Positions 2,370-13,946 of a stretch of 15,965 nucleotides of DNA are shown here, in pieces (position 1 is the stretch's first letter; each line of letters begins with the position of its first letter). Both the position numbers and the translations under genes were made by a program. This DNA comes from Proteobacteria bacterium UBA1847 (GTDB lineage: Bacteria > Pseudomonadota > Gammaproteobacteria > Steroidobacterales > Woeseiaceae), in assembly GCA_002338605.1 (NCBI GenBank), contig DDIP01000029.1:7660-23624 (forward strand), in the 5' to 3' direction. Below the pieces are notes generated by a model that was not told the origin of the DNA, did not search any database, and saw only the letters and a program-made list of their open reading frames with translations.

Positions 2370-3194
2370 TCATAACTCGCGCTTGCCCGTCAGAATCCCG
2401 GGCCGCACCTGGTCAACCATCTCGCGTACCGCCGTGATTACAAGCTCTGGATTGTCCTTGTGAATGTAATGGCCGCAGAGTTCGCAAACGGTATGAGTCG
2501 ATTTCGTCGTTTGGGCGGCGAGTGATTTCTGAGTCTCCAGCCAGACGCTGTAGAACAGTTCGTCATCCTTAGTAGCCTTGCCCCTTGTCAAGACTGACAG
2601 TGGAACGTCGGGGAAGGGCTCTGCGCGCAGTACCTCATGCATCGTCAATTCGCCATCCTCGAGCTCCCTCTTCGGCGCACCCTGTAGCAGCGCCGCGAGC
2701 AAAGCCGGTGGTCTGCATGAGCGAGCACCAGCCGCCTCGCATTGCCGGGTGAAGTCTGCGTGTCGCGAATCGACCAGGACGACCCCTGCAACTTCGTCGG
2801 GGTAGGTTCTCGCAAACAGCTCCATATAGGTACCACCAATTGAGTGTCCGACGAGAACATACGGCGGCGGGAGTTCGAGCGCCTGCAACGTCGCTCGAAG
2901 TTCGCGGACTATGGTGGCTCCGTCACGTGAGCGGTTCGAGCTCCTGCTCGCACCATAGCCAGCCCGATCGTAGGCAAGTACCTGCGCAAATTGCGCCACC
3001 GCGTCGTAAATCGGAACCCAGCTCTCTTTGCCATCAGCAAGCCCGGATTCCAGCACGACAGTTGGTGTTCCCGAGCCGCGCAACACGTACGTGTGAGTCG
3101 CCGCCGAAGTGGTAATTCCCTGTGCCGCCGGCAATGTCGAACAACCAGAGAGAAGGATCATTAATATCGTCAGGTTGACAGTCACAAATTTCAT
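2370..3194 (-). CDS. Alpha/beta-hydrolase lipoprotein
   Basis: This 274-residue protein has a short lipoprotein signal ending in the lipobox LLSGC (lipid-anchored C18). The rest is one alpha/beta-hydrolase domain: an oxyanion-region VVLESGLADGKESW stretch (47-59), YDRAGYGASR (75-84), the nucleophile elbow GHSIGG with S118, and a C-terminal GHYIHKDNPELV block with the catalytic His probably H242. I could not assign the acid residue with confidence. The protein should be an esterase, amidase or similar hydrolase on the periplasmic face of a membrane. Its start codon overlaps the stop of the preceding serine hydrolase gene (ATGA, 4 nt), which indicates translational coupling. It is the last gene of the minus-strand cassette. 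Three hydrolytic lipoproteins in one operon suggest stepwise breakdown of an extracytoplasmic ester or amide substrate, but this is inference. Confidence 0.9.
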   Translation of the reverse strand: MKFVTVNLTILMILLSGCSTLPAAQGITTSAATHTYVLRGSGTPTVVLESGLADGKESWVPIYDAVAQFAQVLAYDRAGYGASRSSNRSRDGATIVRELRATLQALELPPPYVLVGHSIGGTYMELFARTYPDEVAGVVLVDSRHADFTRQCEAAGARSCRPPALLAALLQGAPKRELEDGELTMHEVLRAEPFPDVPLSVLTRGKATKDDELFYSVWLETQKSLAAQTTKSTHTVCELCGHYIHKDNPELVITAVREMVDQVRPGILTGKREL

Positions 3195-4375
3195 GGCAGG
3201 CTCACTTGCAGAAGATCGACATCAAGAAGAATGTCCTGCACCGACAGCTTTAGTCTCTGAAACAGATCCTCGTAATCGCCGAGGCTGGCGCTTGCACAAA
3301 AAACGATCGTCAGGTCATTGCCCGATGATTGCAGGTGGTGAAACTCAGTACGCGTTCCTGCGTCCTGGCCAGCATTCCAGTAGATTGAGACAGTCGGCGT
3401 CGAAACGTTCGCAACGTCGACACCGAGTGCTGTGGCTGAAGGCGGATCGCCGGCACCGGACGGAGTAACAAGTTCGGCCCGCATGGCGTTTGTCAGCACG
3501 CTCTCGGAGGTGAAGATCGCATGGACGAAGCTGGCGACATCAGCAGCGGAAGCCTGAATACCACCGTCAGAAACCCCGTAGTGGCTGTACCACGGGTACA
3601 CATCAAGTAGTGAACCCTCCAACTCGACGTAGCCGTGGGCCAGGTTCGGCACACCGTTCGCCTCGTATCCGTGCAGGGTATCCTGCAGACCGAGGGGTGC
3701 CAGCGCGTAATTACGGACAATGTCCTGGACGGGCAGACCGCTGGCCGCTTCGGCAATCAGTCCAAGGAGCACATAGTTCGAATCGGCATACCGGGCGCTC
3801 GTCCCCGGCTCAAAGTGCAGCGGACGACCCAGGAAATACGGCAGAACGTCTACGTTGCTCCAATGGCGATTCGGGTCCGGAAGAAAGGCATTAAACAGCC
3901 AGTCCGTAGAGTCGTCCTGGTAGTCGAAAATCCCGCTCGTGTGATTAAGCAAATGCCGAACCGTGATTCGATCGCTGGACGGTATTCCGTCTGCAATTGA
4001 CCTTGGCAACCATCGTGTGATCGGATCGTCCAGGCCGAGAAGACCATCGGCCGCCATCTTGACGATTGCGACGGCGGTATAGGTCTTGCCAACACTGGCC
4101 AGGTAAAACCGGTGGTTTGCGCTCAACGGCACCATGGACTCAAGAGCTTCGACGCCGGCGACACCGTTGAAGTCCAGGTTGTCACCTTTGACTGAAACTG
4201 CGACGGCTGGCAAGCCGTCCGCAACGGCCTGATCCAGCGCCACCTGCAATCGTTCCGCTACCGATTGCCGCACGGGCAATTCGGCGGTCCGACTGGATGA
4301 GTTGCAGCCAATTATTTGTGCTGCAAGGAGTGCTACCGTCAGTAAATGTAACGGTTTGCTAAGTAAAGCTTTCAT
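3191..4375 (-). CDS. Lipoprotein serine hydrolase, beta-lactamase/class C PBP fold, with divergent motifs 2 and 3
   Basis: I place the start at the ATG at 4375 rather than an in-frame ATG at 4414. The later one has an AAGGA ribosome-binding site 8 nt upstream, leaves the upstream microprotein gene free, and puts a lipoprotein signal at the N-terminus (lipobox IIGC, C24). The product is 394 residues. The nucleophile motif is S94-V-G-K97 in FYLASVGKTYTA. The tyrosine motif is Y196-A-D198 (GTSARYADSNYVLLG), where many class C enzymes have YSN. The expected HxG motif is replaced by Q337-D-A339 (NAGQDAGTRTEF). HLLNHTSGIFDY (141-152) and PLGLQDT are typical of the Beta-lactamase PF00144 family. The enzyme probably acts in the periplasm as an esterase, peptidase or carboxypeptidase. 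The altered third motif argues against classical beta-lactamase activity. It lies 22 nt downstream of the microprotein gene and overlaps the alpha/beta-hydrolase gene. Confidence 0.9.
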   Translation of the reverse strand: MKALLSKPLHLLTVALLAAQIIGCNSSSRTAELPVRQSVAERLQVALDQAVADGLPAVAVSVKGDNLDFNGVAGVEALESMVPLSANHRFYLASVGKTYTAVAIVKMAADGLLGLDDPITRWLPRSIADGIPSSDRITVRHLLNHTSGIFDYQDDSTDWLFNAFLPDPNRHWSNVDVLPYFLGRPLHFEPGTSARYADSNYVLLGLIAEAASGLPVQDIVRNYALAPLGLQDTLHGYEANGVPNLAHGYVELEGSLLDVYPWYSHYGVSDGGIQASAADVASFVHAIFTSESVLTNAMRAELVTPSGAGDPPSATALGVDVANVSTPTVSIYWNAGQDAGTRTEFHHLQSSGNDLTIVFCASASLGDYEDLFQRLKLSVQDILLDVDLLQVSLP

Positions 4376-4397: not shown

Positions 4398-4496
4398 CTA
4401 AAACGTTCCGCCAAAGACCGCCACCAGCCACCAGGCCAGCATGAAGAGGGCGATCAGGCCGATTAGGTTGGCCGTGAATTTCCAGAATTTGTCCAT
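4398..4496 (-). CDS. 32-residue single-span membrane microprotein (hypothetical)
   Basis: A short minus-strand frame runs from ATG at 4496 to TAG at 4398-4400. The product is 32 residues: a charged, aromatic N-terminus (MDKFWKFTAN) followed by one continuous hydrophobic stretch from about L11 to F28, then GGTF. TAAGGA, formed partly from the stop codon of the upstream hydrolase gene, provides a Shine-Dalgarno 9 nt before the ATG. The gene starts 12 nt after that stop and ends 22 nt before the next start, so it fills an otherwise unexplained operon gap exactly. The lysine-flanked N-terminus and uncharged C-terminus suggest a single inner-membrane helix. I do not recognise a family. Small single-helix proteins in operons often modulate or stabilise a membrane partner, but here the neighbours are predicted lipoproteins, so the partner is unknown. 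Confidence 0.65.
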   Translation of the reverse strand: MDKFWKFTANLIGLIALFMLAWWLVAVFGGTF

Positions 4497-4508
4497 GGCC
4501 GCGCGTCC

Positions 4509-6307: not shown

Positions 6308-7048
6308 CTAGAAGCGGTAAATAAGCGCACTAAAAATGCTCGCTTCGTGATTTTTTTCGATGATTGGACTCGACTTGATGCTGTCGTCCAGGCGCAGGTA
6401 TTCGGCACCAGCGAGAATCTGCCAGCGCTGTGTGAGCTTGTAAGCCGCGGTAAGACCGGCCGAGATATTGGTCGCTCTGCCAGCCGCGTAGGCTGGACGT
6501 GTTGCGTTGGCTTCGCTAACGCGGACGCCGTAGTAGTAGTCAACGAGGTCAGCGCTGCGCCACTTCAGTTCGATTGATGGCACGACCGTCCAGCGACCGG
6601 ATTGATACGGTACCTGGTACGACGCAGCGATCTCGTAGCCCTGGTGTGTTCCGGTAACATCGCCCAGAAACCTGAGCTGAGCGGCACCCCAACGGCCACT
6701 GGTTGCCAGGCTGAAGCCTGCATCGAGTGCCGGGTTTCGTTTCTGCATTCCGGCCAGCGCCGAATTGCCCTTTGGATCAAAGCCGTCGAAGCGCGCCTGT
6801 CCTTCCAGCGCCAGCTGAAAACCCTTCAAATCGATAAGGCGGTAGGAGACCGATCCAAAGCTGAGGCTCAGTCGATCTCCCTCATAAAACGGAAACGGCC
6901 CGCCGTCGATCTCGATATCCGCACCTTGCTGGGGCGGTTGATGTGCGGCGATGCCAATTCCGATGCCCCATTCGCCGGCACGTCCAACGTTCGGTACCAG
7001 GCTTGCGGTCACAAGAACCAGTAACAGCGGCCCAAGTGCTTGTTTCAT
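6308..7048 (-). CDS. MipA/OmpV family outer-membrane protein
   Basis: The product has 246 residues with a Sec signal peptide, cleavage likely after VGRA (residue 24). The mature part is a run of alternating amphipathic beta strands and ends in FSALIYRF, the terminal-aromatic pattern expected for BAM insertion and typical of MipA/OmpV proteins. The N-terminal WGIGIGIAAHQPPQQGADIEIDGGPFPFYEGDRLSL pattern (read in pieces) also fits that family, where an early loop around PFPFYEGDRL is conserved. Members are associated with murein-synthase scaffolding, adhesion, or resistance and adaptation to stress; the role here is not established. The gene heads the tightly spaced hydrolase cassette and has an unusually strong AGGAGG ribosome-binding site. 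That site sits in a perfect inverted repeat, so its translation may be controlled. Confidence 0.85.
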   Translation of the reverse strand: MKQALGPLLLVLVTASLVPNVGRAGEWGIGIGIAAHQPPQQGADIEIDGGPFPFYEGDRLSLSFGSVSYRLIDLKGFQLALEGQARFDGFDPKGNSALAGMQKRNPALDAGFSLATSGRWGAAQLRFLGDVTGTHQGYEIAASYQVPYQSGRWTVVPSIELKWRSADLVDYYYGVRVSEANATRPAYAAGRATNISAGLTAAYKLTQRWQILAGAEYLRLDDSIKSSPIIEKNHEASIFSALIYRF

Positions 7049-7051
7049 TGA

Positions 7052-7085
7052 AAAATCCTCCTGTAGTTAAGAAGTGGAGGATTTT
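7052..7085 (-). promoter_or_regulatory. Perfect 10-bp hairpin sequestering the MipA-gene Shine-Dalgarno (possible dual terminator)
   Basis: On the minus strand AAAATCCTCC (7085-7076) is followed by a 14-nt loop (7075-7062) and then GGAGGATTTT (7061-7052), an exact reverse complement. The 3' arm contains the GGAGG core of the ribosome-binding site, 8 nt before the ATG at 7048. If the RNA folds, the SD is fully base-paired. The A-tract/CCTCC/GGAGGAT/T-tract pattern also resembles an intrinsic terminator for the upstream regulator gene, although the loop is long and only four of ten pairs are G-C. The inverted repeat is directly visible. The regulatory meaning is inference. Confidence 0.6.
7057..7062 (-). 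promoter_or_regulatory. Strong ribosome-binding site AGGAGG of the MipA gene
   Basis: AGGAGG on the minus strand lies 8 nt before the ATG at 7048, near-ideal complementarity to 16S rRNA. It is the strongest SD I see in the window and lies almost entirely within the 3' arm of the hairpin. Confidence 0.8.
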
Positions 7086-7109
7086 GCGGGCCGATTGGTG
7101 CCCTGTAGT
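7060..7109. repeat. Direct repeat CCTGTAGT x2, 42 bp apart, candidate operator half-sites
   Basis: CCTGTAGT occurs at 7060-7067 and again at 7102-7109, start-to-start distance 42 bp (about four helical turns). This lies in the short gap between the AraC-type regulator gene and the MipA gene it probably controls. AraC-family proteins commonly bind repeated half-sites placed on one face of the helix. The repeat is only 8 bp, so chance is possible. Confidence 0.3.
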
Positions 7110-7129
7110 CCGGGCGTGTAAGTCCGGAC
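7107..7129. repeat. Direct repeat AGTCCGG x2 with an embedded palindrome
   Basis: AGTCCGG occurs at 7107-7113 and 7121-7127, 14 bp apart. The second copy extends into the palindrome GTCCGGAC (7122-7129). The element is upstream of the MipA RBS hairpin in the only non-coding gap of the cassette, so it may be a regulator site. No clear sigma-70 promoter hexamers could be assigned nearby. Confidence 0.25.
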
Positions 7130-7140
7130 GAATTCCTGGC

Positions 7141-8325
7141 CTAGTCCGGTGCCGCGGCGAGGGATTTCCGATACTGGCCGGGCGTCATCATGGCGTGTTG
7201 CCTGAACGCGTCGTAAAAGGCCGACTTCGAGTTGAAGCCGGATTCCATGGCGATTGTCAGAATATTGGTCCTGGAGTCGGGCGATGTGGCGAGAAGTTGC
7301 TTCGCCATCCCGACGCGGTACGAATTGACGAAATCAAAGAAATTCTTGCCCGTCTGTTCGTTGATGATCTGCGACAGGTAGTTGGACGAAATCCCGAGTT
7401 GACTGGCCAGCTGGGACATTGTCAGTGTGTTATCGAGATACGGCCGTTCGCGGGCCATGTAGGACTCAAGTTCTTTGAGGAGCAAGCCGCTCGTCTCGGC
7501 ATCGAGCGCGGACCGCTGATATTTCTTTTTCCCGGCGACGACCGTCGTGCTGTCAGTCACCACATCGTCGCCATCCTGCGAGAAAATCTGCGGCTGCCGC
7601 AGGCCCATATACCCGATACTGTAGATGACGATGACAGTGGCGAGATTCAGCAGCCTCTCGAGGTTTTCATTGCTGATAAACGCTCCGGAGAACACGGTCC
7701 CGATAAAGTACAGGATATACAGAACGCAAAATGCAGCGAGCAGGTTTCGCAGCCAGACCAGGCTGATTTTTTGAATCGACGAGAATTGTTCGCGGATGCT
7801 TCGACCGTGCCGGATCAGCCGCCGGATGGACAATGCAAAATAGGTGGCGATTTGCGGAATCGGAAAAACAAAAATAAACAAGCCGCCGAGAGCCCACAAA
7901 CCGATTCCGGGATCTACATCGGCATCCGAATAAATTGACGCGAGCAGTTTGTCATCGCTTACAAAATAGAAGGGAACAAGCAAAACAATACTGGCCGCCA
8001 GCGGCAGGAAGTGGGCGAGTTTCGCGAATGACAAGCGAAACGTCGACTGCGATGTCAACGCACACACATACAGGTATGTCAGCGGCCCGTACAGGAAGCT
8101 GGTAATAGCCTCGATGAAAATCACCCGGGGAAATTCAACCAGGTAGCGAGACTCTTTCAGGAAATCGACACCGAGATCGGCCGCAAACGTTACGGTGATC
8201 AGGGCCAGAAGCCTCAGGGCTGTAATATTTCCGGATTTGACGTTGAGAATTGCAAGCGCGAGGAAGACGCCGTGGGCTGCGCCGAGCAATAGAATGCCTG
8301 AGTACAGTGAGTTTGCAGTTTCCAA
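7141..8325 (-). CDS. Membrane-embedded AraC-family transcriptional regulator
   Basis: The 394-residue product begins at TTG (8325). No ATG or GTG lies between that point and the upstream in-frame stop, and a TTG start fits the family's N-terminus. Residues 1-245 form about seven hydrophobic helices (near 7-28, 36-56, 68-90, 104-122, 142-168, 190-214, 224-242). A linker of about 40 residues leads to an AraC DNA-binding domain at about 280-388, with a first helix-turn-helix around LTMSQLASQLGISSNYLSQI and a second around ILTIAMESGFNSKSAFYDAF, ending in TPGQYR. It should sense an envelope or small-molecule signal and bind DNA from the inner membrane. It sits immediately upstream of the MipA/hydrolase operon, on the same strand with a 92-nt gap, making that operon the likely target. 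A possible -10 TAGAAT lies on the minus strand at 8367-8362, without a matching -35. Confidence 0.9.
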   Translation of the reverse strand: METANSLYSGILLLGAAHGVFLALAILNVKSGNITALRLLALITVTFAADLGVDFLKESRYLVEFPRVIFIEAITSFLYGPLTYLYVCALTSQSTFRLSFAKLAHFLPLAASIVLLVPFYFVSDDKLLASIYSDADVDPGIGLWALGGLFIFVFPIPQIATYFALSIRRLIRHGRSIREQFSSIQKISLVWLRNLLAAFCVLYILYFIGTVFSGAFISNENLERLLNLATVIVIYSIGYMGLRQPQIFSQDGDDVVTDSTTVVAGKKKYQRSALDAETSGLLLKELESYMARERPYLDNTLTMSQLASQLGISSNYLSQIINEQTGKNFFDFVNSYRVGMAKQLLATSPDSRTNILTIAMESGFNSKSAFYDAFRQHAMMTPGQYRKSLAAAPD

Positions 8326-8456: not shown

Positions 8457-9488
8457 TCAAAAAGGGGGTCGGGAACCCCTGAGCACGTTGACCACATTGG
8501 TCCCGATGTCGGACACCGCGTAACCGCCCTCCATGACAAACAGCGTCGGCAGGTCAAGGCGGCCAATACGCTTGCCGACTTCAAGATAGTCCGGCGTCCT
8601 GAGTCGAAACTGCGAGATCGGATCATCGATAAACGTGTCTACGCCAAGGGATACGACCAGGTGGTCGGGCGCGAAGTCTGATATTCGCTGCAAGCCGGTA
8701 TCGAGCGCGGAAAACCAGTCGTCCGCACTGCTCTGCCACGGCAACGGCAGGTTCAGGTTAAAGCCTTTGCCCGTACCCTCGCCGGTCTCATCGGCGTGTC
8801 CGAGGAAAAACGGGTACTCCTGGCGCGGGTCGCCATGGATCGAAACAAACAGAATGTCATTGCGATCGTAAAAAATCGACTGCGTGCCGTTGCCGTGGTG
8901 GTAGTCGACATCGAGTATGGCTACGCGCTTCGCGCCCTGATCACGAAGGTATTGAGCGGCAATCGCCGCATTGTTGAAAAAGCAGTATCCGCCATAGTAA
9001 TCGGCGGCGGCGTGATGGCCCGGCGGACGGCATAACGCGAAGGCCCGGGTTTCGCCATCAACAAGCTTCTTCGCTCCGGTCAGTGCAACGTTTGCGCCCG
9101 ATGTGATGGCAGTCCAGGTTCCGGCGGTTATCGGCGTTGCGGCATCAAATGAAAAATACGACAACTTGCCGTCGATGTAGTCCGGCTCGATCTGTCGCAT
9201 GCCGCGCACCGGCCAGTTGAGGGGTAGCGCGTCGCTGCTTCGACCCTCGGCTGTCCACAGTCCCCAGGCTTCTTCGAGAAACGCGACGAACTGCGGGCTG
9301 TGCACGCGTCGAATGGGTTCGAGGCCGAAGGTGTCAGGAGCGATTATTTCGCCGAGCTGCGCGTCCCTGACTGCGGCTAATATATTGTCTGCACGAGCCG
9401 GGAATTCAAAGCAAGGCTGGAACTTGCCGTCGTTGAGCTCCCCCTGGCCGTGGTGCAGTCGATGGTCGTCGCTGTAAATCGTCAGCAT
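8457..9488 (-). CDS. Acetylpolyamine amidohydrolase / class II HDAC-like deacetylase
   Basis: I choose the ATG at 9488 over an in-frame upstream ATG at 9542, giving 343 residues, close to Mycoplana ramosa APAH (341). With that start the active-site numbering coincides with the recalled APAH numbering: H158 and H159 (RPPGHHA), Zn ligands D195 and H197 (ILDVDYHHGNG), D284 (SLGVDTF) and catalytic Y323 (MEGGYAV). FGGYCFFNNAAI-type and SIHGDP blocks also match. The reaction is Zn-dependent removal of acetyl from N-acetylated polyamines such as acetylputrescine or acetylspermidine, in the cytoplasm (no signal peptide). The long L2 insert around 90-120 that narrows the APAH pocket is present, but position 117, Glu in APAH, is Ala here. 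Substrate may therefore differ. The gene diverges from the deacylase-like lipoprotein gene across 115 nt that must hold both promoters. Confidence 0.92.
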   Translation of the reverse strand: MLTIYSDDHRLHHGQGELNDGKFQPCFEFPARADNILAAVRDAQLGEIIAPDTFGLEPIRRVHSPQFVAFLEEAWGLWTAEGRSSDALPLNWPVRGMRQIEPDYIDGKLSYFSFDAATPITAGTWTAITSGANVALTGAKKLVDGETRAFALCRPPGHHAAADYYGGYCFFNNAAIAAQYLRDQGAKRVAILDVDYHHGNGTQSIFYDRNDILFVSIHGDPRQEYPFFLGHADETGEGTGKGFNLNLPLPWQSSADDWFSALDTGLQRISDFAPDHLVVSLGVDTFIDDPISQFRLRTPDYLEVGKRIGRLDLPTLFVMEGGYAVSDIGTNVVNVLRGSRPPF

Positions 9489-9590
9489 TTCGCTATTTCC
9501 ATTTCGGCTGGTACGCGTCAGTATCGCAAGAACGCTTTGCAATACACAGCGATTGTGCGATCGTCAGGCGCTGCCTGCCAGCCCCCCACT

Positions 9591-11346: not shown

Positions 11347-12684
11347 ATGAACGAGCAAATCGACCTCACCACACACTGGGTCGGCATCACGTCGCTGATT
11401 CTATTCGTACTGGCGTATTCAGCGGTCATCGCCGAAGAATACACGCACATGCGAAAGTCCAAGCCGGTCCTGCTGGCTGCGGGCCTGATCTGGGCACTGG
11501 TTGGTTACCAGTATGCAGAGGCCAATCTTTCGCTGGTCGCCGAGGAAGCGATCGATCATTTCCTGATTGAATTTGCACAGCTCTTCCTGTTTCTCCTTGC
11601 CGCGATGACTTACGTCAATGCGATGAGCGAACGTAATGTGTTCAACGCCCTGCGCGCCTGGCTGACGAGCAAGGGATTTAGTTACCGGAGTATTTTCTGG
11701 ATCACCGGCGTGATGAGTTTTTTCCTGTCGCCGGTGATCGATAACCTGACAACCGCACTGGTCATGTGTGCCGTTGTTCTGGCAATCGGAAAGGGAAAGC
11801 CGAAGTTCATTACCGTGGCCTGTATCAACATCGTCGTCGCAGCGAATGCGGGCGGCGCATTCAGTCCGTTTGGTGATATCACGACATTGATGGTCTGGCA
11901 GCGTGGCCTGATAGAGTTCCAGACGTTTTTCGCGCTGTTTATTCCATCCGCCGTCAACTACCTGGTGCCCGCGACCCTGATGTCCTTTGCCGTACCGAAG
12001 GAAGCAGCGACGGCCAGCAAGTCACGCGAGAAAACCAAACCCGGGGCCAAGCGAATTGTGCTGCTTTTTGTGACGACTGTCGCCACGGCCGTCACCTTCC
12101 ACAATGTCTTCGGCTTGCCTGCATTTATGGGCATGATGACAGGACTCGCTTTTCTCAAATTGTTCGGCTATTACCTGCGAATGACGTCACGGGTCTCGGT
12201 GGCGGAGCGTACGCAGTACCAGTCAGTCGGTGAGGTCACACCGTTCGACACTTTCAAGGAAGTCGCGAGGGTCGAGTGGGACACACTGTTGTTCTTCTTC
12301 GGCGTCATTCTGTGCGTCGGCGGTCTGGGATTCATCGGCTACCTCGAACACATGTCGGTGTTCCTGTACAACGATCTGGGCGCAACAGCCGCCAACATCA
12401 TCGTCGGGATCCTGTCGGCACTCGTTGACAATATCCCCATCATGGTTGCCGTACTCGAAATGAACCCGGCGATGGACCTGCAGCAATGGTTGCTTGTCAC
12501 CATGACGGCTGGCGTCGGTGGCAGTATGTTGTCCATCGGCTCCGCTGCGGGCGTTGCACTGATGGGCCAGGCCCGGGGTCACTACACGTTTTTCGGACAC
12601 CTTCGCTGGACGCCCGCCATCGCACTCGGTTACTTTCTGAGTATCTGGGTTCACTTCCTGGTAAACGCCCGATTCGCAACCTGA
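11347..12684 (+). CDS. nhaD: NhaD-type Na+/H+ antiporter
   Basis: This 445-residue inner-membrane protein of the ion-transporter superfamily has about 11-12 helices. Family hallmarks are VIAEEYTHMRKSKPVLLAAG-type sequence near 27-46, the first half-repeat SPVIDNLTTALVM (D132-N133), GGAFSPFGDITTLMVW (169-184), and the second half-repeat ALVDNIPIMVAVLEMNP (D361-N362), with SIGSAAGVALMG near 396. The paired DN motifs on the two inverted repeats are the expected cation-binding sites. It would expel Na+ (or Li+) in exchange for protons, supporting growth in saline or alkaline conditions. The start has only a weak SD-like GGGA just upstream. It lies in the middle of the + strand run, and its stop codon overlaps the probable start of the QEGLA protein gene. 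Confidence 0.93.
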   Translation: MNEQIDLTTHWVGITSLILFVLAYSAVIAEEYTHMRKSKPVLLAAGLIWALVGYQYAEANLSLVAEEAIDHFLIEFAQLFLFLLAAMTYVNAMSERNVFNALRAWLTSKGFSYRSIFWITGVMSFFLSPVIDNLTTALVMCAVVLAIGKGKPKFITVACINIVVAANAGGAFSPFGDITTLMVWQRGLIEFQTFFALFIPSAVNYLVPATLMSFAVPKEAATASKSREKTKPGAKRIVLLFVTTVATAVTFHNVFGLPAFMGMMTGLAFLKLFGYYLRMTSRVSVAERTQYQSVGEVTPFDTFKEVARVEWDTLLFFFGVILCVGGLGFIGYLEHMSVFLYNDLGATAANIIVGILSALVDNIPIMVAVLEMNPAMDLQQWLLVTMTAGVGGSMLSIGSAAGVALMGQARGHYTFFGHLRWTPAIALGYFLSIWVHFLVNARFAT

Positions 12685-13946
12685 CCGAACTCGACAGACT
12701 CAGTGCGCTGGACAAAGAGCTTGTCGCTGCGTCGCGTGACATCAAAATCCTGTCTGAAATCGCCTGGGAACCGGCGCTGCAGCGTCCGTTTATTCAGCGC
12801 TGGGAGCGAGGCAACCCGGCACTCCCGGAGGTCAGCTACGATCCCGCGGATTATTCACCGCAGATACGGCAGCTCGATTCGATCATCCGGCGAGCATCCG
12901 CACTGGAACACCCGCTCGCGGACTACCTGAAAGATACGGCACAATCTTATATCGATGTTGCGCGGCTGATCGGTAGCCTCGGTACAAGCAGAATGACCGA
13001 GCTGTCGATCGGTATTTACGGCCGTCCCGGGAACCCGATAACCGGCGGCGACGGGGCAACCAGCCTTGACGCCGCAAAATACTTTATCGATGTCGGTGCC
13101 GAATTTTACGCGACGTACCTGCTTCGCGATGCGGACTATTGCCTGAGTGCGCAAACCATCAAGGACGACCTGGAAGCCGGTCTTAAAGAAGTATTCGACG
13201 ACGGCCTGATCAGTGTCGTGGTCGACCCCGACCTGGCCGCCAAGGCTGCAGCGGGAGCAACCCGTATTCGTCTGCGGGACTCAACGTGTTTTTCGCCGTA
13301 CGACGCACAGCAATTGCTGCAGCACGAGGTTTTTGTACATTCGCTGACCGCGCTTAACGGTCGTTCGCAGGCAACGATCAGTGCGATGAGCCTCGGGGCG
13401 CCGCGAACGACAGCAGCACAGGAAGGACTCGCGACATTCGCCGAGCTGGTAACCGGGTCGATTGATATTTCCCGTCTCGAGCGCATCGCCATGCGTATCA
13501 TCGCGATCGACATGGCGCTCAACGGAGCGGACTTCATCGACGTTTTTCGCTACTTTGTGGACACCGGGTTACCGGTCGCCGAATGCTACAATTCGGCGAT
13601 GCGCGTATTCCGGGGTGCGCCGGTCAGCGGCGGTCATGCGTTTACGAAAGACTCGGTCTACCTGCGTGGTATGCTGGAGGTGCACACGTTTTTCCGCTGG
13701 GCTTTCAAAGAACAAAAGTTTCGATTTTGTCAGCACTTCTTTGCCGGTCGCATGACACTGAACGATGTTGTTCGTTACGAATCGTTTTTCGAAGACGGCA
13801 CCTTGAGTCAGCCAAAGTACCTGCCACCGTGGATGACGCGCACGGCCGGCCTCGGTGGCTATCTCGCATTTTCTGTTTTTGCGAATACAATCAACCTGGC
13901 CGGAGTGCAAACCGAACACGATTTCTATGATTTGATACGCCACTGA
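12681..13946 (+). CDS. QEGLA-motif protein (DUF1704), MATCAP-like putative zinc peptidase
   Basis: The conserved domain begins at LDRLSALDKELVAASRDIKIL, typically 10 residues from the N-terminus of family members. No ATG, GTG or TTG exists in frame there. The nearest plausible start is CTG at 12681, which overlaps the nhaD stop as CTGA, giving 421 residues. An ATG at 12486 is in frame, but would add 65 residues unlike any domain, encoded inside nhaD. The protein carries H215-E-V-F-V-H220 (an HExxxH metal-binding pattern) and AAQEGLATFAEL (Q247-E248). These are the signatures of the flavohemoglobin-expression-modulating QEGLA family (PF08014), whose eukaryotic relatives are the tubulin tyrosine carboxypeptidases MATCAP1/2. 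It is probably a cytoplasmic zinc peptidase of unknown substrate. No signal peptide is visible. Gene identity is firm; the exact start is uncertain. Confidence 0.85.
   Translation: MTELDRLSALDKELVAASRDIKILSEIAWEPALQRPFIQRWERGNPALPEVSYDPADYSPQIRQLDSIIRRASALEHPLADYLKDTAQSYIDVARLIGSLGTSRMTELSIGIYGRPGNPITGGDGATSLDAAKYFIDVGAEFYATYLLRDADYCLSAQTIKDDLEAGLKEVFDDGLISVVVDPDLAAKAAAGATRIRLRDSTCFSPYDAQQLLQHEVFVHSLTALNGRSQATISAMSLGAPRTTAAQEGLATFAELVTGSIDISRLERIAMRIIAIDMALNGADFIDVFRYFVDTGLPVAECYNSAMRVFRGAPVSGGHAFTKDSVYLRGMLEVHTFFRWAFKEQKFRFCQHFFAGRMTLNDVVRYESFFEDGTLSQPKYLPPWMTRTAGLGGYLAFSVFANTINLAGVQTEHDFYDLIRH

What the first reader, a model, noticed from the sequence alone, without database searches (positions are those of the whole stretch)
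7049..7085. Perfect anti-SD/SD hairpin immediately before the MipA/hydrolase operon
Seen directly: AAAATCCTCC and GGAGGATTTT are exact reverse complements separated by 14 nt, and the second arm holds the GGAGG of the only consensus-strength ribosome-binding site in the region, 8 nt from ATG. The arrangement suggests an RNA switch: a thermometer, a protein- or small-RNA-opened RBS, or a terminator of the upstream regulator gene whose T-tract abuts the next start. Because the four genes downstream are tightly coupled, locking this one RBS could silence the whole envelope cassette. No known riboswitch class is recognised.
Basis: partly seen in the sequence, partly recalled or inferred. Interest (0 to 1): 0.7.

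Follow-up and report, generated by a model that had tools for sequence, protein, structure and literature searches.

The report
Promoter-embedded ribosome-site lock beside AraC regulator
A short inverted repeat that can hide the translation start signal of an outer-membrane protein gene is part of a control module conserved in related bacteria near one regulator gene; its first arm probably lies just before the point where the gene's own message begins, so that only stray read-through messages would be kept silent.

Summary
The hairpin is real: 10/10 bp, loop 14, GGAGG in the 3' arm, 8 nt before the mipA ATG. It is the end of a ~58-nt module of which I found six copies in four genomes: upstream of mipA (window, L031, L032) and of a beta-lactamase-fold gene (L031, L032, L090). 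Each copy has a GTCC(14 nt)GGAC dyad, then 27 nt, then a pyrimidine tract exactly complementary to that gene's own Shine-Dalgarno (SD): CCTCC/GGAGG or TCTCCT/AGGAGA. All four genomes carry the AraC-hydrolase cassette.

The 27-nt spacing is constant; the tract-to-SD gap varies (14-35 nt). Two -10-like bases, A and T, are invariant just before the tract. Best reading: the AraC-linked promoter starts RNA right after the anti-SD tract, so its own mRNA has a freer SD, while read-through RNA carries the lock, as in phage T4 gene e. Start sites are inferred, the promoter is weak by consensus scores, and four of six leaders fold no better than about 2 sd from shuffles. A fully transcribed RNA switch is the main rival. 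The terminator reading fails in the orthologues.

The parts
7141..8325 (-). AraC-type regulator gene (HTH_18); stop codon 11 nt before the dyad
   Evidence: Pfam; 57% identical homologues in the same cassette in G013 and G196
7108..7129 (-). Dyad GTCCGGACTTACACGCCCGGAC, candidate operator (or RNA hairpin 1)
   Evidence: 85.4% of cells paired in 6 rows
7081..7086 (-). Candidate -10 CAAAAT; its A(-11) and T(-7) are invariant in 6 of 6 modules
7076..7080 (-). Anti-SD tract CCTCC, core of the 5' arm (whole arm 7076-7085), 27 nt after the dyad
7075..7075 (-). Predicted transcription start (purine A) just after the anti-SD tract
   Evidence: inference; not mapped
7052..7061 (-). 3' arm GGAGGATTTT holding the SD GGAGG (7057-7061), 8 nt from ATG
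6308..7048 (-). mipA (MipA/OmpV outer-membrane family)
   Evidence: Pfam PF06629, 162 bits
4509..6293 (-). First beta-lactamase-fold serine hydrolase of the cassette
   Evidence: Pfam PF00144
4399..4497 (-). Small ORF with one hydrophobic stretch; a similar ORF is in L031 and L032
   Evidence: read by eye; no NCBIfam match
3191..4375 (-). Second beta-lactamase-fold hydrolase (bla2, likely ATG start at 4375); no module upstream in the window
2370..3194 (-). Alpha/beta hydrolase, last gene of the cassette

Best explanation
The inverted repeat is the downstream end of an AraC-linked promoter module. Inferred mechanism: the AraC-type regulator binds the GTCC...GGAC dyad, centred about 44 bp upstream of the start and abutting a weak -35. 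RNA polymerase uses the nAnnnT -10 and starts just after the pyrimidine tract. The own-promoter mRNA therefore lacks the anti-SD arm and its SD is freer. RNA running in from upstream (the AraC mRNA into mipA, or leakage past the terminator before bla2) carries the arm, folds the SD into the hairpin and is not translated. Shown here: the six-copy anatomy, constant spacing, arm-to-own-SD match and predicted folding. Inferred: start site, AraC binding, presence of read-through RNA, effect on translation.
For: Six of six modules found have the dyad, 27 nt to the tract, and a tract that is an exact reverse complement of its own SD (CCTCC/GGAGG in the window, TCCTCC/GGAGGA in 2, TCTCCT/AGGAGA in 3; sequences; spacing). 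The tract-to-SD gap varies: 14, 23, 23, 35, 33, 33 nt. Swapping arms and SDs between mipA and bla2 weakens pairing in 10 of 12 cross cells of five leaders (L090 not included). Among 63 other gene starts with an SD of 5 nt or more, 4 hold GGAGGA and 6 hold AGGAGA. A48 and T52, where A(-11) and T(-7) would be, are the only invariant A and T 4 nt apart in the module. The best common -10 position over offsets -60 to +70 is this one; 29 of 3000 four-group shifts reach it. The bla2 copies in L031 and L032 lie 35 nt after the T-run of a terminator-like stem, and the window AraC stop lies 11 nt before the dyad, so an upstream promoter has little non-coding room. The window has neither terminator nor module before bla2. 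RNA from +1 against RNA from the dyad lowers the SD opening cost in 5 of 6: 12.8 to 4.0, 9.9 to 3.4, 8.6 to 3.7, 4.8 to 2.7, 7.7 to 3.8 kcal/mol; the tract alone (RNA from the tract against RNA from +1) does so in the same 5: 10.0 to 4.0, 11.1 to 3.4, 7.8 to 3.7, 3.2 to 2.7, 6.6 to 3.8. Precedent T4 gene e (passages of PMC3014915).
Against: No start site is mapped. The promoter is weak: the simple scans call none here, in none of five leaders is this the top-scoring -35/-10 pair (second in the window), and the -10s of L031 and L032 mipA score only 0.7 and 1.4 bits. With only mipA and bla2 as groups, 253 of 3000 shifts reach the -10 score. A purine follows the tract in only 4 of 6 (T in L031 bla2 and in L090). 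In L031 bla2 the tract does not free the SD (4.9 to 5.8 kcal/mol), and the window SD stays mostly paired without it (P unpaired 0.04). Whole-leader folds of L031 and L032 are unremarkable (z -0.43, -1.90, -1.02, -1.79); L090 z -2.60. The dyad shows compensatory changes (5 of 6 Watson-Crick at columns 8/21, permutation 12 of 720; covariation score reached by 4 of 500 shuffles), which an RNA hairpin explains better than an operator. The L031, L032 and L090 start codons used are my choice among in-frame starts. The copies are related by descent, so they are not six independent trials.
Confidence: 0.42

Rival explanations
1. The whole module is an RNA leader. Hairpin 1 (GTCC...GGAC with a conserved CUUA loop) and the SD hairpin are both in the main mRNA, and a protein, small RNA or ligand that binds hairpin 1 opens or closes the RBS.
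For: Both hairpins appear in the minimum-energy fold of 6 of 6 leaders. Hairpin 1 has pairs with changes on both sides. Loop bases CTTA and G are invariant.
Against: Constant 27-nt linker of low sequence conservation; little non-coding room for a promoter upstream in bla2 of L031/L032 and in the window; the second-best common -10 (motif-8) would start inside hairpin 1's 5' arm; copies seen only in this regulator's cassette; no Rfam match; in L031 bla2 the centroid structure lacks the SD hairpin.
Confidence: 0.24
2. The module is only an AraC operator plus promoter. The pyrimidine-rich discriminator resembles an anti-SD by coincidence and the hairpin has no role.
For: Promoter-like anatomy as above. 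In L031 bla2 the tract does not affect predicted SD accessibility.
Against: Exact 5-6-nt complement to the own SD in 6 of 6, of two different kinds; GGAGGA and AGGAGA are in 4 and 6 of 63 other SD-bearing starts; SD stems of 7 bp or more are rare (3 of the remaining 94).
Confidence: 0.19
3. Start-site choice as in pyrC (recalled): RNAs that start within the pyrimidine tract carry a 5' anti-SD and are shut, RNAs that start a few bases later are open, tying translation to nucleotide pools.
For: The tract lies at the expected start region; titles of the pyrC work were seen in a reference list.
Against: With this -10, a start early enough to keep most of the tract would be only 1-3 nt downstream of it, closer than usual (recalled).
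Confidence: 0.08
4. Intrinsic terminator of the AraC mRNA.
For: A-run, stem and T-run in the window.
Against: 14-nt loop, outside what the terminator scan looks for (loops of 3-8), and not called there; T-run absent in L031 and L032 while the stem core stays.
Confidence: 0.03

Closest known systems
Phage T4 gene e (also soc, 49, I-TevI): RBS locked in long early transcripts, late promoter in the region encoding the 5' strand
   Same: The promoter lies in the sequence of the 5' arm, so upstream-initiated RNA is locked and locally initiated RNA is open (passages of PMC3014915)
   Different: Here a chromosomal AraC-linked cassette with the module repeated within one locus; start sites not mapped; no T4 late promoter
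Read-through protection of IS10-type transposases (recalled; searches listed no paper on it)
   Same: Hairpin formed only in RNA entering from outside hides the RBS
   Different: The cassette is not a transposon and the arm is not known to be a terminal inverted repeat
Enteric pyrC start-site switching (recalled; titles only)
   Same: Anti-SD near the 5' end and the start region
   Different: No evidence of alternative starts or nucleotide sensing; not pyrimidine genes
ROSE and fourU RNA thermometers (recalled)
   Same: SD masked by a local stem
   Different: Full Watson-Crick anti-SD without the mismatched or U-rich pairing recalled for those classes; no Rfam match

Membership tests
T4 gene e-type read-through lock | 5' arm complementary to the SD | tested here: met
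   6 of 6 leaders
T4 gene e-type read-through lock | Promoter overlapping the 5' arm, start after it | tested here: inconclusive
   -10-like bases at a fixed place, but weak scores and no mapped start
T4 gene e-type read-through lock | Longer upstream transcripts exist and are poorly translated | not testable with these tools
   No RNA data; no terminator called on the coding strand between AraC and mipA in the window, L031 or L032
Intrinsic terminator | Stem followed by T-run, conserved | tested here: not met
   T-run absent in L031 and L032; not called in the window
Known riboswitch or thermometer (Rfam 15) | Covariance-model match at gathering score | tested here: not met
   0 matches in the window; 2 hits with E 1.7 and 2.4 for 6900-7250, both eukaryotic RNA families far below gathering
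AraC-dependent promoter | Conserved site at fixed distance upstream of the -10, in the regulator's own locus | tested here: met
   27 nt to the tract in 6 of 6; R1 matches in 3 of 107 family genomes, all with the cassette, plus the diverged copy in G086
AraC-dependent promoter | Direct-repeat half-sites bound by the regulator | tested here: inconclusive
   The site is an inverted repeat; direct repeats seen by eye in the window are not kept in L090; binding not testable here

The most novel reading that the evidence does not exclude
A self-insulating bacterial promoter cassette: one compact module joins an AraC-type operator, a -10 and an anti-SD just upstream of +1 that is tuned to each gene's own SD. 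Only RNA started by the regulator is translated, and any read-through RNA is silenced. The module is present before a second gene in the same locus with its anti-SD matched to that gene's different SD.
Probability: 0.37. Interest if true: 0.65.

Novelty: new variant of a known kind. Interest (0 to 1): 0.45.

Why it matters
If right, it shows an ordinary chromosomal operon using a phage-style trick to make translation depend on which promoter made the RNA, with no extra factor. It would give a simple sequence rule (a tract just upstream of +1 complementary to the gene's own SD) that can be looked for wherever start sites are mapped, and a natural design for leak-proof expression units.

Tried and rejected
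Rfam search: nothing. Terminator: not conserved. Coding extension of mipA into the leader (open in L031/L032): rejected by eye, since changes between the two are spread over all codon positions and the window has an in-frame stop. Genome-wide CCTCC/GGAGG pairs: chance level. Other module copies: R1 in 107 family genomes gave only the five training copies at E<=0.1, with the stricter filters used above 40 genomes; it missed the diverged G086 copy, so further diverged copies in the other genomes are not excluded. R2 was run in five genomes only: 14 matches at E<=10, namely the six training copies and eight weak ones. Of the eight, G021 (25.8 bits) lies inside a long coding frame, one lies in this window at 1788-1852 antisense to the symporter gene, and six (E 5 to 10) were not opened. 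Dyad motif with up to 2 mismatches in 107 genomes: 12 matches in 10 genomes, 5 of them cassette copies; 7 scattered others against 7 for the reversed control pattern. Only L073 of these was opened; there the hit lies over the end of a coding frame.

Reach of the homologue searches: mipA at E<=1e-40 in 3 of 396 order genomes and at E<=1e-36 in 3 of 107 family genomes; bla2 at E<=1e-40 in 4 of 107 and at E<=1e-50 in 4 of 396; AraC at E<=1e-50 in 5 of 107. One genome-contig scan gave 6 loci; the two at 56-60% were used, the four at 33-36% were not compared at the leader. DNA around other close proteins (for example the 75% one, P0002) was not available: no metagenome scans were allowed.

Literature: searches (none found in 83). 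Seen: passages of PMC3014915 and PMC8450116, reference-list passages of PMC5730371, otherwise listings with abstract starts. None of the listed titles is about this module, but the searches were few and narrow.

Full report
What is there. On the - strand, between the stop of an AraC-type regulator (7141-8325) and the ATG of mipA (7048), the 92-nt gap holds AAAATCCTCC-ACTTCTTAACTACA-GGAGGATTTT, two exact reverse-complement arms 14 nt apart, with GGAGG 8 nt before ATG. The 42-nt RNA folds at -12.4 kcal/mol (z -5.45, 0 of 200 shuffles as good); longer stretches give z -2.15 and -2.50, -5.01 and -4.16. A CCTCC/GGAGG pair at 10-30 nt is at chance level across the genome (24 against 26 in the control). 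A stem of 10 bp onto an SD is rarer: 1 of 99 gene starts in the loci then held, this one. Stems of 7 bp or more were at 8 of 99: 4 module leaders, 1 opposite-strand artefact of this hairpin and 3 of the remaining 94.

Orthologues. MipA relatives at 60% (L031, the same place as L002 in genome G013) and 56% (L032, the same place as in genome G196) both follow a 57% AraC homologue, and the cassette order AraC, mipA, hydrolase, small ORF, hydrolase, alpha/beta hydrolase is kept. Both leaders keep CCTCC and GGAGG, with a 23-nt loop in place of 14. The T-run of the window is missing in both, so the stem core is kept without the terminator feature. Aligning the leaders showed a second conserved block, GTCCnGACTTACmCGnCnGGAC. 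The mipA starts in L031 and L032 are taken by homology to the window; the frame is open further upstream there.

More copies. Searching that block with up to 2 mismatches in 107 family genomes found, besides the three mipA copies, one upstream of the second beta-lactamase-fold gene (bla2) in L031 and in L032, and seven scattered hits against seven for the reversed control. In the two bla2 copies the 27-nt-distant tract is TCTCCT and the SD is AAGGAGA: a different SD with a matching anti-SD. A covariance model of the five copies (R1) found only these five in 107 genomes at E<=0.1. Looking at the other AraC homologues (5 of 107 genomes at E<=1e-50) showed a sixth, diverged copy (14.8 bits by R1, below that threshold) in G086, between a truncated AraC gene (integrase and AlpA-type genes lie just upstream) and a bla2-type gene. 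It has GTCCG...CGGAC, 27 nt, TCTCCT and then AGGAGA, 10 nt before the ATG I take as the start (2163; another in-frame ATG lies at 2118). The fifth AraC-bearing genome, G021 (37%, other neighbours), has no credible copy: its best R2 match lies inside a coding frame.

Anatomy of the module. In 6 of 6 the dyad-to-tract distance is 27 nt, while the tract-to-SD distance is 14, 23, 23, 35, 33 and 33 nt. Invariant columns are GTCC, CTTA, G, GGAC, A27, A48, T52, C54 and C57. A48 and T52 stand where A(-11) and T(-7) of a -10 hexamer would be if RNA starts just after the tract (6 nt of tract in five copies, 5 nt in the window). A purine follows the tract in 4 of 6: A in the window, G in L031 and L032 mipA, A in L032 bla2; T in L031 bla2 and L090. 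A -10 weight table (recalled frequencies) scores this place best in common among offsets -60 to +70: 170 of 5000 grouped shifts reach it with five leaders; with six, 29 of 3000 with four groups and 253 of 3000 with two. The runner-up, 8 nt before the dyad, would start RNA inside the dyad. Taken leader by leader the promoter is weak: in the five leaders scored it is never the top -35/-10 pair (second in the window), and the consensus scans call nothing here. The dyad would be centred at about -44, where activators that touch the -35 region usually sit (recalled).

Why the promoter is probably inside. In L031 and L032 the bla2 module begins 35 nt after the T-run of a terminator-like stem (L031 -36.6 kcal/mol, z -6.4; L032 weaker, z -1.0; the simple scan, limited to loops of 3-8, did not call them). 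In the window the AraC stop is 11 nt before the dyad. Where bla2 has no terminator before it (window), it has no module either. These facts fit a promoter unit. They fit a long RNA leader less well, since its promoter would have to overlap a terminator or a coding end.

Why the anti-SD is probably not chance. Two kinds of tract match two kinds of SD. In the cross table of five leaders (L090 was found later), mipA arms pair with bla2 SDs by 4 bp only (6 of 6 cells weaker than the own pair); bla2 arms pair less well with the SDs of L031 and L032 mipA (4 of 4 cells) but better with the window SD (2 of 2), so 10 of 12 cross cells are weaker. Among 297 other gene starts, 63 have an SD of 5 nt or more; of these, GGAGGA occurs in 4 and AGGAGA in 6, and 4 of 63 have an exact upstream complement of an SD hexamer (starts called mechanically). 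RNA starting after the tract has a cheaper SD opening in 5 of 6 leaders, whether compared with RNA from the dyad or with RNA from the tract; the gain is small in L032 bla2 (3.2 to 2.7 kcal/mol from the tract) and absent in L031 bla2.

Mechanism and its limits. My best reading is a read-through lock: the regulator's own promoter makes RNA that lacks the anti-SD arm, and RNA from upstream is shut. The closest precedent is T4 gene e, where longer early RNAs fold the RBS away and late promoters lie in the region that encodes the 5' strand (passages of PMC3014915). The main fact against it is that the dyad behaves like a stem: 85.4% of cells pair, and the covariation score is reached by 4 of 500 shuffles in six rows (in five rows 38 of 500). 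That favours the rival in which both hairpins are in the main mRNA; all six leaders do fold that way as minimum-energy structures, although against shuffles only the window (z -5.0) and L090 (z -2.6) stand out, the others having z -0.4 to -1.9. Only start-site mapping can decide.

Verdict. The thing is a new variant of a known kind, moderately interesting, and testable in a laboratory strain.

Noticed in passing
window 4399-4497 (-); L031 about 4267; L032 about 8580: A ~30-aa ORF (MDKFWKFTANLIGLIALFMLAWWLVAVFGGTF in the window) with one hydrophobic stretch lies between the two beta-lactamase-fold genes in all three cassettes; no NCBIfam match.
   Followed up: partly
L090 20-2013: In G086 the AraC homologue is cut to its C-terminal part just downstream of a phage-type integrase and an AlpA-like gene, yet the module and the bla2-type gene behind it remain.
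   Followed up: partly
window 12486-13946 (+): Protein with a very strong match (346 bits) to the MATCAP (microtubule-associated tyrosine carboxypeptidase) Pfam model in a bacterium.
   Followed up: no
window 8457-9542 (-): Histone-deacetylase-fold protein on the same strand just upstream of the AraC gene.
   Followed up: no
L032 8670-8800: Repeats of GGGGTCGAACCGA and its reverse complement, seen by eye, between the small ORF and the bla2 module.
   Followed up: no
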